NCBI GenBank assembly: GCA_021800275.1
Contig: JAJYZB010000001.1
Span: 186,001-250,000 of the forward strand
Origin: a bacterium
Lineage (GTDB): Bacteria; Vulcanimicrobiota; JABDET01
Direction: 5' to 3'
Length of the DNA stretch: 64,000 bases
This document shows positions 13,893 to 29,771 of this stretch, piece by piece. The position numbers and the translations under genes are program-made. The notes below the pieces were generated by a model. The model was not told the DNA's origin, did not search any database, and saw only the letters and a program-made list of their open reading frames with translations. How positions within the stretch are numbered: position 1 is the stretch's first letter; every line of letters begins with the position of its first letter.

Positions 13893-14036
13893 GGATTCTC
13901 TGCCGGATATTCGCACTATCTGCAATCTTCTTCTCTTGTGAGATTTCACTTTTATCACAAGCAGAATCCACTATTCTAGCAAAAAATGATCCCAATCATG
14001 ATCTGGCGAATCTGTTTACGAAATGAAACTGCAAAA

Positions 14037-15890
14037 ATGCTGACAAAAAGCGCTGAGCGCCTCTCCTGTTTTTTTTTATTCCTACTCTTTTTAACCCTCC
14101 AGCAGGTTTCTGCCAAAACAACTCCTCAAGCAAACTCCCTCCTGGAACGAGCTGAAAAAGCGACTGTTTTTGGAATGATAGATACCCTTGATCATCACTA
14201 TCAATTCAACTGGGTTAAACAGTTCAAAATTCAGGTTCTGGTCAGAGGATGGATGCACTTTGCCAGAGCAGAAAGACACAAACGCAGTCTAAACTGGGTC
14301 ATTAAAGACTGCAGAAAAGATGGGATTCTGTTTTCAGGAGGGGGAGTCGTCAATCAGATAGGACTATCTCCTTCCCTGCTAAAATACGCCGAGAAAAAGG
14401 AAGCCGTTGGCTTAACCCCGTGGGGAAAGCCAGAACCCAGCGAAGGAAAAAATGTTTATTCTGGAAGCCTTTACAGCAAAGCTTTTTTGAATTACAAACT
14501 TCACATTCTTGAAAAACAGATTGACATGGGGGTTAATTTAATTCACCTGGATGTCATTGTCCAACTTTGGGATCTAAATGACAAATTTGACACTCCTACA
14601 ATTACGGCATTCCGAAACTTTCTAGAAAGAAAATATCCAAACTACACAGCAGAAGATTGGAAACAAAATTTTGACATTTCTTCATCAAAGCCCTGGGGAG
14701 GAATTCATCATTTCAATTACCGTACCTATCTCCAAAATCGCCGCTATTCTGATGGAAGCTTTTTTGCGGATCATCCCTACAACCCAGCAAACCCTCTTGC
14801 TGTCGAATGGGGAATCCCCAAAACAGGCCTCAAAAATAATTGGAGAATCTTTATCACTCAAGTATTTCCGAGGAACAGTTTTATGCATCAAACGGTTTTA
14901 CGAGTGTCCCGCTATTATGCCTCTTCATTAAAGGCTTACGCTAAAAAAGAAGGGAAACAGGTCTTAATCACTTTCAATGGAGCTAATCCGTATGCTGACT
15001 TCCAGGTGGACTCAGGGCTGACTGCCTATACCGTAAAAAAAATGACAGAATATGGCATTGGAGAAATGATTCTAAAAGCTCTAAATCATTACCCCAATTC
15101 AATTGAAGGTGAAAGGCTGAAACACGTACTCACCCCTTTCCTCCAAAATCCTCTGCAGCAGTCTTATGGGTTAAAAGAAAAATTCTTATCTCTTATAAAA
15201 CAAAAGCCAGGACTCTTAAACAAACTGAAAGGGTTCTTATACCAGATAAAAACCCGCAAGAAACAGGTTCATCTTAAAAATTTCCCCCTTCAATCTATTA
15301 TACCAGATGTCCAGTGGATCATCCAAAAATCAAGAAAGATGATCCATAATCAGAAAGCCCCTGTTGTTTTTTTTGTGGATTATCCCCCACCCTGGCAGAC
15401 CCTAAAACTTTGGAGTGGTCATTCTGTGCGTGGATTTCTCACAAAACTCTGCGCGGAGATCTATTCAGCAGGAGGAAGATTTGCTTTTATGCCTGATTTC
15501 CTTCAATCTTTCCCTGCTGCAGAAAAAAGTCTTCAGCAAATGGCAGTTTTTATCCGAAAACATTCTTCTTTTTATCATGGAATGAAGCTCATAACTGAAA
15601 GCCCTCTGATACAAGGAACCAATTCCAACCTTTTTACGACCACTTTGTGGAAATCCAGGGAGACTATAAAAGGAAAATGGATCTGGATTCTGCATATTGT
15701 CAATTTAAATTCTACACCTGCTGACTCTCTATGGGTTAGGATTCCTTTACAAATCCATCCGATCAAAAATATCCGTTTTTATTCTCCCTCACGTCCATTT
15801 CAAGGAATTCCGATCGTACGACAAGGGAACAAAAGGGTCATTCAACTCCCAGAATTTCAAAATTATGGCGTCGTCCGATTTCAATCCTGA
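14037..15890 (+). CDS. Large exported protein, possible glycoside-hydrolase-like fold
   Basis: I chose ATG 14037 because a signal peptide follows directly (SCFFLFLLFLTLQQVSA). An earlier in-frame ATG at 13986 would give an unusually long N-region. Neither has a good ribosome site. The product is 617 residues. Segments such as DMGVNLIHLDVIVQLWD and QVLITFNGANPYADFQ, plus many Trp and Tyr, resemble beta-strand ends of a TIM-barrel glycosidase. The order of an N-terminal barrel and a late beta-rich part fits too. I cannot match it to a defined family. It follows tRNA-Ser and precedes a toxin-antitoxin pair. Confidence 0.6.
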   Translation: MLTKSAERLSCFFLFLLFLTLQQVSAKTTPQANSLLERAEKATVFGMIDTLDHHYQFNWVKQFKIQVLVRGWMHFARAERHKRSLNWVIKDCRKDGILFSGGGVVNQIGLSPSLLKYAEKKEAVGLTPWGKPEPSEGKNVYSGSLYSKAFLNYKLHILEKQIDMGVNLIHLDVIVQLWDLNDKFDTPTITAFRNFLERKYPNYTAEDWKQNFDISSSKPWGGIHHFNYRTYLQNRRYSDGSFFADHPYNPANPLAVEWGIPKTGLKNNWRIFITQVFPRNSFMHQTVLRVSRYYASSLKAYAKKEGKQVLITFNGANPYADFQVDSGLTAYTVKKMTEYGIGEMILKALNHYPNSIEGERLKHVLTPFLQNPLQQSYGLKEKFLSLIKQKPGLLNKLKGFLYQIKTRKKQVHLKNFPLQSIIPDVQWIIQKSRKMIHNQKAPVVFFVDYPPPWQTLKLWSGHSVRGFLTKLCAEIYSAGGRFAFMPDFLQSFPAAEKSLQQMAVFIRKHSSFYHGMKLITESPLIQGTNSNLFTTTLWKSRETIKGKWIWILHIVNLNSTPADSLWVRIPLQIHPIKNIRFYSPSRPFQGIPIVRQGNKRVIQLPEFQNYGVVRFQS

Positions 15891-16628: not shown

Positions 16629-16697
16629 ACTGCAGAGGAATCTAAGAAATCTTTAAAATTTAACATTTTTTTAATCGATCTCTTTCTTCGCTCGCGT

Positions 16698-16703
16698 TAT
16701 AAT
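16698..16703 (+). promoter_or_regulatory. -10 box of the kinase-like gene
   Basis: TATAAT lies 26 bases upstream of the likely start. No good -35 match is seen at 16-18 bases, so it may need an activator or be weak. Confidence 0.4.
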
Positions 16704-16728
16704 TAAAACAAAGAAAATAAGGATGAAA

Positions 16729-17730
16729 ATGCTAGAAACAACTGTCACTAATAACGAAAATATTTCAGCCTTAGCAAGAAAGGCTTATGACCAGGCAAAA
16801 AAAGCGAAAACCTGGGAAGGGGCTAGATCCCAATTAAGAGAAGGCTTTGATGCGATTCGGGACAGCTCAGAATCATCTGACAGAGAAAAAGCTCTGGCTA
16901 ATTTAGGAATTGTTTGTGGACATAAAGCCAGCGGCAGCGAGACAGCGGCAAATATCCGATACCGCTTCATGAAAACCATTATCAGCCCTCCTCCCTCTTT
17001 TTCAGATGCCGAACACCAATCTTCTTATTCAAATTCTGACTTAACCATTGCCCACAAAGAAAAAATCGGGAACGGGGTTTGCCATACCTATAAAGTAACT
17101 CTGAAAAGCGGAGAAACAGCAGTTTGGAAACCTGTAAAAGGAGAGCCAGCAGACCGAAAAAGAAAATACATTCCACCAAAAACAGGAGCGCAGAGAGAAG
17201 AAGCTGCTTCTTATCTTGCGGAATGGATCGGAGTGTGGGCTCCAAAAGCCGTCTATGTGACAACAAAAGAAAAAAACTCTCTCATCCCCTGGAAAGAAAC
17301 GCAGCAGAAAGGCGCTTTAATTCAATGGATTGAAGGGAAAACAGCTTCCTCACTGTCAGTCAAACCCTCAGACATTCGCGAGTACTATCCTCAAAAATAT
17401 GAAGAACTCTCACTTTTTGACAATATCATTGGGAACACGGACCGCCATGACGGCAACTGGATGATTGGAAATGGAGATGTGATCCCTATTGATCACGGAT
17501 ACGCGTTTCCCGAACAAAATCTAAAACAGAGCAAAAACTATGATTTTGCGGATCAAGCCTTCACTTTATCCGAACAATCGAAAACTAAACTTGAAAATCT
17601 AATGAAACACAAAGCTGAAATCGAACAAAAATTAATTCCTCTTATTGGGGGAGCGGCTGTAAGCGCCATGTGGGAAAGAGTGAACAAAATGATCGAAACA
17701 GGAGCAGCATCCCCCTGGTGGCATACCTGA
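16729..17730 (+). CDS. Atypical kinase resembling PI3/4 kinases
   Basis: The 333-residue product starts at ATG 16729, since AAGGA (16719-16723) overlaps the alternative ATG at 16723. Residues about 110-255 show kinase landmarks: a glycine loop-like KIGNG, a lysine in AVWKPV (Lys134), a catalytic loop NTDRHDGNW (Asp238, Asn243) and a metal-binding IDHG (Asp255). The DRHxGN...ID(H/N)G order is that of phosphatidylinositol 3/4-kinase-like enzymes and not of Hanks kinases. The first 105 residues are helical and unassigned, and there is no signal peptide. The substrate could be a lipid or a protein. It has its own -10 box and stands next to a toxin-antitoxin pair. Confidence 0.7.
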   Translation: MLETTVTNNENISALARKAYDQAKKAKTWEGARSQLREGFDAIRDSSESSDREKALANLGIVCGHKASGSETAANIRYRFMKTIISPPPSFSDAEHQSSYSNSDLTIAHKEKIGNGVCHTYKVTLKSGETAVWKPVKGEPADRKRKYIPPKTGAQREEAASYLAEWIGVWAPKAVYVTTKEKNSLIPWKETQQKGALIQWIEGKTASSLSVKPSDIREYYPQKYEELSLFDNIIGNTDRHDGNWMIGNGDVIPIDHGYAFPEQNLKQSKNYDFADQAFTLSEQSKTKLENLMKHKAEIEQKLIPLIGGAAVSAMWERVNKMIETGAASPWWHT

Positions 17731-27043: not shown

Positions 27044-27068
27044 GTAACGCTCATAGGAGGAAGTGCAT

Positions 27069-28211
27069 TTGGGTGGAGTTATTCACGCTGTAAGCAAAGC
27101 TGCGGGTGATGTTGGAGGAGCTCTGCACAAAGCCGCGGACGCAGTGGGAAATGCTGTTGACTCAGCAGGAAAAGCAGTTTCAAGCGCTGGCAAAGACATT
27201 CAAAATGGAGTAGATTCAGCAGGAAACTGGGTGGACAACCATGTGGATGGAGCTGTAGATTCATTTGAACATTCTGCGATTGGAAACAATGTGGTCGGGC
27301 GCTTTCTTGGAAGCGCTGTAAAAGACACAACTCATTTCTCAACAGGGGTAGTCTCAGGAGCCACAAGTCTTGTTTCAGGGACTACAGAACTTGCTGGTGG
27401 AGCGATGCAGTACGCTTCAAACAGCAAATTCAGAACCACAGCCAACAAAGAAATAGGCTATGTTGTCAGCCACCCCGGTCAGGTTGCTAGCGCTGTATGG
27501 AAAAGTGGAGTGCAATCCTTTGAGAAAGATCCTGCTCATGCAGCAGGGGAACTGGCAGGTGTTATTGGCTCAACAATTTTAACGGGTGGATTAGGAGCTG
27601 CAGGGGATGCAGGAGAAGGTGGAGGTCTTGCAGGGGATGCAGTTGACACAGCCAATGCAGCCTCAAAAGCAGCAGACACAGCCAATGCAGCAGGAACTGG
27701 AACCCGCGATATTTCCGCACTTACAAAAGAATTTGCGGCAAAAGTAGGGGCTTTCGGAAAAAGTGATGCCACAGACCAGGAAATTTTAGATGAGCTGAAA
27801 GGGTTTGGCCATGGGGTCAGTGAGCACTTCCCTGGAGGTGAAAAAGCATCTGACGCATTTCTGCAGCAAAGCGTCGAAAAAGGAGCTGAATCAGCAACAC
27901 GATTTACTTCTGAACAGGCGGCTGTGGATACTGCAAAACAGTCTTTAAACGCTTTTACAGAACGGGCGGCTCAAGATCCAGAATTTGCATCTAAACTCCA
28001 GGATTTTTTAGATGGAAAACAGCCTGCAGTAGGAACTATTTTTGATACAGGGAAGCCTATAGGGGAAGGTTTTATAAAAGGCACTGATGGAACTGCTCAA
28101 AAACTGGAAGGTATTACTAAAGCATACGCCAGGCTCAAATGGAGCGGTGGGAAGCCTGGAACAGGGATCATCAAAATTCTTACTCTTTACCCCAAATATG
28201 TTCATCCATAA
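27069..28211 (+). CDS. Polymorphic toxin with C-terminal RNase A-like domain
   Basis: The start is probably TTG 27069, eight bases after AGGAGG; GTG 27063 is only two bases from it. The product is 380 residues. Residues 1-65 repeat small amphipathic A/G/D-rich units, and 85-190 hold an Ala/Gly-rich pre-toxin region with hydrophobic stretches. The last 140 residues match the bacterial RNase A-like domain of CdiA C-termini (Bact_RNase_A): candidate histidines at 248 and 253, Arg278 in ATRFTS, a helix AVDTAKQSL, and a terminal ILTLYP with Thr372-x-Tyr374, which in the characterised relative act in RNA cleavage. There is no signal peptide and no LXG or RHS part, so the export route is unclear. 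The immunity gene follows directly. Confidence 0.78.
   Translation: MGGVIHAVSKAAGDVGGALHKAADAVGNAVDSAGKAVSSAGKDIQNGVDSAGNWVDNHVDGAVDSFEHSAIGNNVVGRFLGSAVKDTTHFSTGVVSGATSLVSGTTELAGGAMQYASNSKFRTTANKEIGYVVSHPGQVASAVWKSGVQSFEKDPAHAAGELAGVIGSTILTGGLGAAGDAGEGGGLAGDAVDTANAASKAADTANAAGTGTRDISALTKEFAAKVGAFGKSDATDQEILDELKGFGHGVSEHFPGGEKASDAFLQQSVEKGAESATRFTSEQAAVDTAKQSLNAFTERAAQDPEFASKLQDFLDGKQPAVGTIFDTGKPIGEGFIKGTDGTAQKLEGITKAYARLKWSGGKPGTGIIKILTLYPKYVHP

Positions 28212-28226: not shown

Positions 28227-29771
<1,545 letters not shown>

What the first reader, a model, noticed from the sequence alone, without database searches (positions are those of the whole stretch)
16729..17730. PI3/4-kinase-like enzyme next to a toxin-antitoxin pair
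A bacterial protein carries the DRHxGNW and IDHG motifs of phosphatidylinositol-kinase-type folds and a candidate ATP lysine, together with an unknown N-terminal helical domain. It lies beside an AbrB/RelE-like module in an accessory stretch near tRNA-Ser. Such kinases occur as effectors, as toxins or as modifiers of host or self proteins. The substrate is open.
Basis: partly seen in the sequence, partly recalled or inferred. Interest (0 to 1): 0.7.

Follow-up and report, generated by a model that had tools for sequence, protein, structure and literature searches.

The report
Orphan PI4K-like kinase, probable secreted effector
A little-known bacterium carries a genuine kinase whose fold is closest to the enzymes that phosphorylate membrane lipids in animals; its relatives sit at the ends of toxins made by bacteria and phages, usually with a small companion gene that this copy lacks, so it is probably a weapon or effector rather than part of the toxin-antitoxin pair beside it.

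Summary
Window 16723-17730 encodes a real kinase: Pfam PI3_PI4_kinase 47.4 bits (cut-off 27.1), lysine, glutamate, DRHxGN and DHG all conserved, purifying selection, and a predicted fold closest to type II PI4-kinases (Z 19.7, against 15.0 for CtkA and 12.9 for HipA). The link to the RelE-like pair is not supported: the same-genus orthologue keeps the guaB/hpnA neighbourhood and has no such pair. The kinase domain is a mobile warhead. A paralogue in the same genome carries it behind an N-terminal module shared with RNase A-type toxins (one in this window). Elsewhere it is fused to phage MuF or follows T7SS EspC-like domains. In 17 of 47 relatives a ~90-residue protein with no Pfam or PDB match follows directly; it also occurs without a kinase, like an immunity gene. 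The window copy and its orthologue lack it. They share an exactly conserved upstream block resembling a palindrome found upstream of RNase toxins and of leader-bearing proteins in another genome of the phylum. Best reading: an orphan, partner-less member of a PI4KII-like kinase effector/toxin family, probably secreted. Substrate, secretion and toxicity are untested.

The parts
16723..17730 (+). PI4KII-like kinase gene, 335 aa (333 aa if translation starts at 16729)
16765..16986 (+). N-terminal helical module (residues about 15-88), found as four repeats in a protein of genome G005
17029..17727 (+). kinase domain (residues 103-335)
17128..17130 (+). K136, candidate ATP lysine (32 of 33 rows)
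17197..17199 (+). E159, candidate ion-pair glutamate (33 of 33)
17440..17457 (+). catalytic loop D240-RHDG-N245
17491..17499 (+). metal-binding motif D257-H-G (PI4KII has DNG at this place)
16659..16679 (+). 21-bp block TTTAACATTTTTTTAATCGAT identical upstream of the same-genus orthologue; contains TTAACA-N3-TGTTAA with one mismatch
16698..16703 (+). TATAAT, possible -10 box, also kept in the orthologue
   Evidence: read by eye; not reported by the consensus scan
27063..28211 (+). related system: the N-terminal module of the kinase paralogue joined to an RNase A-like (CdiA-CT) C-terminal domain
28227..28508 (+). putative immunity protein of the RNase A-like toxin (homologues follow the two other RNase A-like toxins)

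Best explanation
The gene encodes an active kinase with the type II PI4-kinase (PI4KII-like) fold. Its catalytic domain belongs to a prokaryotic family that is moved around as the C-terminal warhead of secreted toxins, effectors and phage-head proteins, often encoded with a ~90-residue partner that most likely neutralises it. The window copy is an orphan, partner-less effector: the kinase domain behind a ~75-residue helical module, with its own conserved promoter region. Proposed mechanism: it is exported, perhaps by the flagellin-less flagellar-type type III apparatus of this genome, enters another cell, binds ATP-Mg and phosphorylates a protein or an inositol lipid there. Shown: kinase family, fold, conserved catalytic set, selection, family-wide warhead contexts, partner linkage, absence of the partner here. 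Inferred: catalytic activity, secretion, target cell, substrate, toxicity, partner as inhibitor.
For: Kinase: PF00454 47.4 bits; profile of 33 rows hits PI4KII-alpha at 2.4e-26 with aligned NTDRxxxNW and AIDNGLAFP; structure Z 19.7 to PI4KII-beta, 231 residues, 3.2 A. Warhead: the paralogue in the same genome shares its N-terminal module with two RNase A-like toxins of that genome; kinase fused to Phage_Mu_F in L045 (5.6e-18) and following an EspC-like domain in L046 (1e-4, just under cut-off); four kinases of the phylum have unlike N-termini. Partner: in 17 of 47 kinase ORFs; leave-one-group-out models recover all six groups, partly; 3 of 3 hits in 9 phylum genomes follow a kinase; of 14 hits in 298 actinobacterial genomes 9 lie beside a kinase and 5 are orphans. 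Regulation: a palindrome lies upstream of the window kinase, its orthologue, two RNase A-like toxins and leader-bearing G005 proteins including the one made of this N-terminal domain. Secretion machinery: export genes without flagellin in G000.
Against: The window gene and its orthologue have no partner gene, and are syntenic with housekeeping genes in the genus, which also fits an internal enzyme. No secretion signal was tested. The window's N-terminal module differs from the toxin-linked module of the paralogue. The palindrome at this gene has one mismatch and the motif was noticed partly from this very region; in G000 as a whole it is hardly enriched (25 against 18 control). 27 of 47 relatives lack the partner, including every Chlamydiota kinase that could be judged.
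Confidence: 0.55

Rival explanations
1. A resident regulatory or metabolic kinase acting inside its own cell, of the kind suggested by the actinobacterial SCO1664 family, with the helical module as a docking or sensor domain.
For: Genus-level synteny with guaB and purifying selection; no partner gene; TIGR03843 SCO1664 family hit of 48.5 bits; the shorter SCO1664-like kinase matches in the actinobacterial genomes also lack the partner.
Against: TIGR03843 cut-off is 172.4 bits; no match in G002 (same family, 67% complete) and only 6 of 58 genomes have any match; the tree puts it beside the partner-bearing toxin-like paralogue (98/95).
Confidence: 0.25
2. An effector aimed at eukaryotic cells, mimicking PI4KII and making PI4P on host membranes (a special case of the best explanation).
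For: Closest solved fold and sequence profile is PI4KII; no immunity-like gene, as in toxins used on hosts (argument in PMC3482391, passages); Chlamydiota relatives lack the partner too.
Against: No host is known; no Cys-rich CCPCC lipidation motif (recalled from PI4KII; the protein has two single cysteines); fold similarity does not fix lipid specificity.
Confidence: 0.2
3. A HipA-like toxin of a type II toxin-antitoxin system, with the neighbouring AbrB/RelE-like genes as its antitoxin module.
For: Adjacent, 94 bp apart, same strand; HipA is a structural relative, Z 12.9; HipA_2 19.9 bits.
Against: Orthologue lacks the pair; HipA_2 is under its cut-off of 27; the pair is itself a toxin plus a putative antitoxin; the kinase has its own conserved upstream block.
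Confidence: 0.03
4. A domesticated phage gene: a virion-associated kinase left by a prophage.
For: Relatives in MuF fusions and in head-tail clusters of haloviruses; viral contigs with kinase plus partner.
Against: No phage genes were recognised among the neighbours read; flanks are hopanoid, menaquinone and purine genes syntenic in the genus; nearest kin are cellular.
Confidence: 0.08

Closest known systems
Type II phosphatidylinositol 4-kinases (PI4KII-alpha/beta)
   Same: Best structural match (Z 19.7, 231 residues, 3.2 A) and best sequence-profile match in the PDB (2.4e-26); shared NTDRxxxNW and ID(N/H)G-type motifs.
   Different: About 20% identity; no CCPCC motif; extra N-terminal helical module; substrate unknown.
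Polymorphic toxin systems (CdiA, T7SS, MuF types)
   Same: One catalytic domain behind different N-terminal modules, small conserved downstream gene, MuF and EspC-like fusions, RNase A-like sister toxins.
   Different: The only kinase toxin seen in the passages of PMC3482391 is LanM-like; the window gene itself has no downstream immunity-like gene.
HipA / HipBST kinases
   Same: Kinase of the same superfamily (Z 12.9 HipA, 12.7 HipT); a small protein neutralises HipT (abstracts).
   Different: HipA models below cut-off; partner lies downstream, has no Pfam match and no significant fold match.
SCO1664 family (TIGR03843)
   Same: Shared kinase region over 217 residues.
   Different: Far under the cut-off (48.5 against 172.4); the shorter kinase matches taken as this type lack the partner.
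Haloviral gp16 'phosphatidylinositol kinase'
   Same: Kinase encoded in the head-tail completion cluster and overlapped by a small gene; kinase profile hit 1e-12.
   Different: Its small downstream gene gp17 is not recognisably the same family (1.1 bits).

Membership tests
PI3/PI4-kinase superfamily (PF00454) | Score over the Pfam gathering threshold | tested here: met
   47.4 bits against 27.1
PI3/PI4-kinase superfamily (PF00454) | ATP lysine, DRxxxN catalytic loop, DxG metal motif | tested here: met
   K136 32/33, D240 33/33, N245 33/33, D257 33/33, G259 32/33
Type II PI4-kinases | Fold closer to PI4KII than to other kinases | tested here: met
   Z 18.2-19.7 for nine PI4KII entries, next CtkA 15.0; model of pLDDT 82
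Type II PI4-kinases | CCPCC palmitoylation motif (recalled) | tested here: not met
   Two isolated cysteines only
Type II PI4-kinases | Phosphorylates PI at the 4-position | not testable with these tools
   Needs an assay
Polymorphic toxin systems | Same C-terminal domain behind different delivery modules | tested here: met
   MuF, EspC-like, RNase-toxin module, other N-termini
Polymorphic toxin systems | Adjacent small immunity gene | tested here: not met
   None at the window gene or its orthologue; present at the paralogue and 17 of 47 relatives
Polymorphic toxin systems | Secretion and toxicity to other cells | not testable with these tools
   Needs an experiment
HipA / HipBST | HipA profile over its cut-off | tested here: not met
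   HipA_2 19.9 bits against 27
HipA / HipBST | Adjacent DNA-binding antitoxin conserved with the kinase | tested here: not met
   AbrB/RelE-like pair absent beside the orthologue
SCO1664 family (TIGR03843) | Score over the curated cut-off | tested here: not met
   48.5 against 172.4 bits
CdiA-CT RNase A (PF18431), for window 27063-28211 | Score over the gathering threshold | tested here: inconclusive
   18.8 bits for the window protein, 23.8 for its homologue L119, cut-off 27, both over profile positions 1-113 of 113

The most novel reading that the evidence does not exclude
A PI4KII-type kinase toxin family with its own immunity protein, of a fold not matched in the PDB, has spread through phage MuF toxins, actinobacterial T7SS-type toxins and Armatimonadota/Eremiobacterota effectors. 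In the last group part of it has become an orphan effector under a shared promoter element and is exported by flagellar-type type III machinery that no longer makes a flagellum.
Probability: 0.35. Interest if true: 0.8.

Novelty: new variant of a known kind. Interest (0 to 1): 0.6.

Why it matters
If true, lipid-kinase-type enzymes become a warhead class in conflicts between bacteria and of phages with bacteria, with a ready-made inhibitor family. It would bear on where PI4KII-like enzymes came from, and gives a directly testable kinase-inhibitor pair in laboratory E. coli. It would also point to candidate secreted proteins in a poorly cultured phylum.

Tried and rejected
TA partnership: rejected because the orthologue lacks the pair. 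A regulon box of 21 bp: only the two kinase genes carry it exactly in G000 and G001, so it is not a regulon in that form; the shorter palindrome is enriched in G005 (95 against 24 control) but hardly in G000 (25 against 18), and it is not at the G000 export genes by the listed positions. Partner as HipS-like: a HipA N-terminal region appears at Z 2.5, which is noise. Partner in Pfam or PHROGs: no significant match for 10 and 8 proteins. Halovirus gp17 as partner: 1.1 bits. The first genome-contig scan with the single protein found no relative; the alignment-based scan found 37 loci. Partner protein against phages by tblastn: no match. PADLOC hits (PDC-M03A, M66A) are mostly short matches around the DRH motif. 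Paper searches for a PI4K-type polymorphic or MuF toxin: searches returned none; others listed no paper whose title or shown abstract start describes one; passages of PMC3482391, PMC5512222, PMC8262856 and PMC9758233 were read, not the whole texts; absence from print is not shown. When Actinobacteria were left out of the partner profile, L038, L039, L042, L048 and L064 were not recovered at E of 1 or less. The partner count uses a profile built from 11 partner proteins of the same loci.

Full report
Observation. The ORF 16723-17730 is real and encodes a kinase. ATG 16729 has the better distance from AGGA. Across 33 aligned rows K136 is kept in 32 and E159, D240, R241, N245 and D257 in all 33. 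Between the window and its same-genus orthologue the kinase part has dN 0.116 and dS 1.35, the N-terminal part dN 0.288 and dS 2.0: both look under purifying selection, though dS is near saturation.

Organism. The window lies in genome G000 (2.46 Mb, 98% complete). Genomes of the same phylum include records titled Armatimonadetes and Candidatus Eremiobacterota.

Fold. The AlphaFold2 model (33 sequences, mean pLDDT 82, kinase part mostly 85-98) gives PI4KII-alpha and -beta as the best PDB matches: Foldseek 3.1e-8; VIA-align Z 19.7, 231 residues, 3.2 A. CtkA follows at 15.0, Fam20 at 14.3 and below, HipA at 12.9. The sequence profile agrees: PI4KII-alpha 2.4e-26, Fam20 proteins at 4e-14 to 1.4e-9, other PI3/PI4 kinases weaker than 1e-3. 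It is therefore a PI4KII-like kinase by fold and sequence. That does not make it a lipid kinase.

The TA pair. The RelE-like gene is weakly supported and the AbrB-like gene is unrecognised by Pfam. In G001 the orthologue (76% identical overall) sits beside guaB, the futalosine-hydrolase-like gene and the epimerase gene as in the window, but has no TA pair. The pair is a variable neighbour.

Warhead behaviour. A paralogue in the same genome (L024:9317-10849; 35% identical in the kinase part) has a long Ala/Gly-rich N-terminal module. That module, searched in 148 genomes, occurs 4 times in G000 (one a short fragment), 3 times in G001 and once each in G016 and G038. Two of the G000 copies end in RNase A-like CdiA-CT domains: window 27063-28211 (PF18431 at 0.0029) and L119 (8.6e-5), both full-profile but below cut-off. 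A further copy in G001 has the same C-terminal sequence by eye. Each is followed by a small ORF of one family (29-30% identical), the layout of toxin and immunity. So the module carries toxins, and the kinase is one of its C-terminal domains. Elsewhere the kinase is joined to Phage_Mu_F (L045, 5.6e-18), follows an EspC-like T7SS domain (L046, 23.1 bits against cut-off 23.5; L041 weaker), or lies in haloviral head-tail clusters.

The partner. Directly downstream of many kinases is an 80-130 residue ORF, often overlapping the kinase stop. Of 47 kinase ORFs (four duplicate loci removed) 17 have it, 27 do not and 3 end too near a contig end. Of 20 partner hits 17 are directly downstream; the other 3 are a tandem second copy (L046), one between two kinase domains in a long open frame (L040), and a weak one beside L064. 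Leave-one-group-out profiles recover at least part of every group in place: Armatimonadota/Eremiobacterota 7.5e-7 to 4.7e-4, the Thorarchaeota record 3.4e-8, L008 1.3e-9, other viruses 6.2e-7 to 0.055, Kiritimatiellae 0.0041, Actinobacteria 1.2e-4 to 0.055 with five of the loci missed. In 9 genomes of the phylum the partner occurs 3 times, each next to a kinase. In 298 genomes of an actinobacterial order it occurs 14 times in 10 genomes: 8 directly downstream or in tandem, 1 lying 291 bp upstream, and 5 away from any detected kinase. The shorter kinase matches in those genomes, taken here as SCO1664-like, have none. Orphan copies fit immunity better than an obligate cofactor. Its predicted fold (pLDDT 88) has no significant PDB match (best Z 2.8), and Pfam and PHROGs hold no significant match.

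The window copy. Neither it nor its orthologue has the partner; the only partner gene found in G000 is at the paralogue. In the tree the two are sister to the partner-bearing paralogue from G001 (98/95), which fits loss of the partner. Their N-terminal domain recurs as four repeats in a G005 protein.

Regulation. Upstream of both copies a 21-bp block is identical amid diverged DNA. It contains TTAACA-N3-TGTTAA with one mismatch. Exact copies lie upstream of two RNase A-like toxins and of the G005 repeat protein. In G005 the palindrome is enriched (95 against 24 for the reversed pattern); 14 of the 16 exact sites read there have an ORF starting 73-126 bp away, and at 8 of the 16 that ORF starts MKI, with a disordered-looking leader. 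In the window shuffles give 0.12 matches per 64 kb, observed 1. The motif was partly defined from these same sites, so this is a lead, not a test.

Secretion. G000 has export and basal-body genes of flagellar type (two contigs) and no flagellin match, while G001 has flagellins and a second set. G050, G016 and G005 also lack flagellin matches but have export-gate matches. This is a possible route, untested.

Conclusion. An orphan PI4KII-like kinase effector is the best reading (0.55). A resident kinase (0.25) is the main rival. Lipid or protein substrate is open.

Noticed in passing
window 27063-28211 and 28227-28508: RNase A-like (CdiA-CT) toxin with the paralogue's N-terminal module and a putative immunity gene; homologous pairs in G000:C19 (L119) and G001:C34 (L025).
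   Followed up: partly
L091, L092 (G000:C8, C10); G001:C26: Flagellar-type export and basal-body genes in a 98% complete genome without any flagellin match; three other genomes of the phylum (G005, G016, G050) show the same.
   Followed up: partly
G005 loci L139, L143-L157: Palindrome TTAACA-N3-TGTTAA enriched four-fold over control; 14 of 16 exact sites have an ORF starting 73-126 bp away, half of all with MKI starts: candidate secretion regulon.
   Followed up: partly
genomes G005, G016, G026, G050 and others: Many proteins matching only the C-terminal half (about positions 320-655) of the FHIPEP export-gate family; 19 matches of all kinds in G016 alone.
   Followed up: no
L024 7629-8897 and L033 9634-10902: Gene near the kinase paralogue with a weak Peptidase_Mx match (0.00097) and a DHEAGHS motif, kept in both species of the genus.
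   Followed up: no
L003, L005, L051: Viral contigs and a Thorarchaeota record carrying two kinase genes in tandem, with the partner after each kinase in L003 and L005 and after the first in L051.
   Followed up: partly
L055-L059, L061, L062, L066, L067: A family of Chlamydiota PI4K-like proteins with N-termini of their own and no partner gene found.
   Followed up: no
window 13986-15890: 634-residue ORF beside tRNA-Ser with no Pfam match at E of 1 or less.
   Followed up: no
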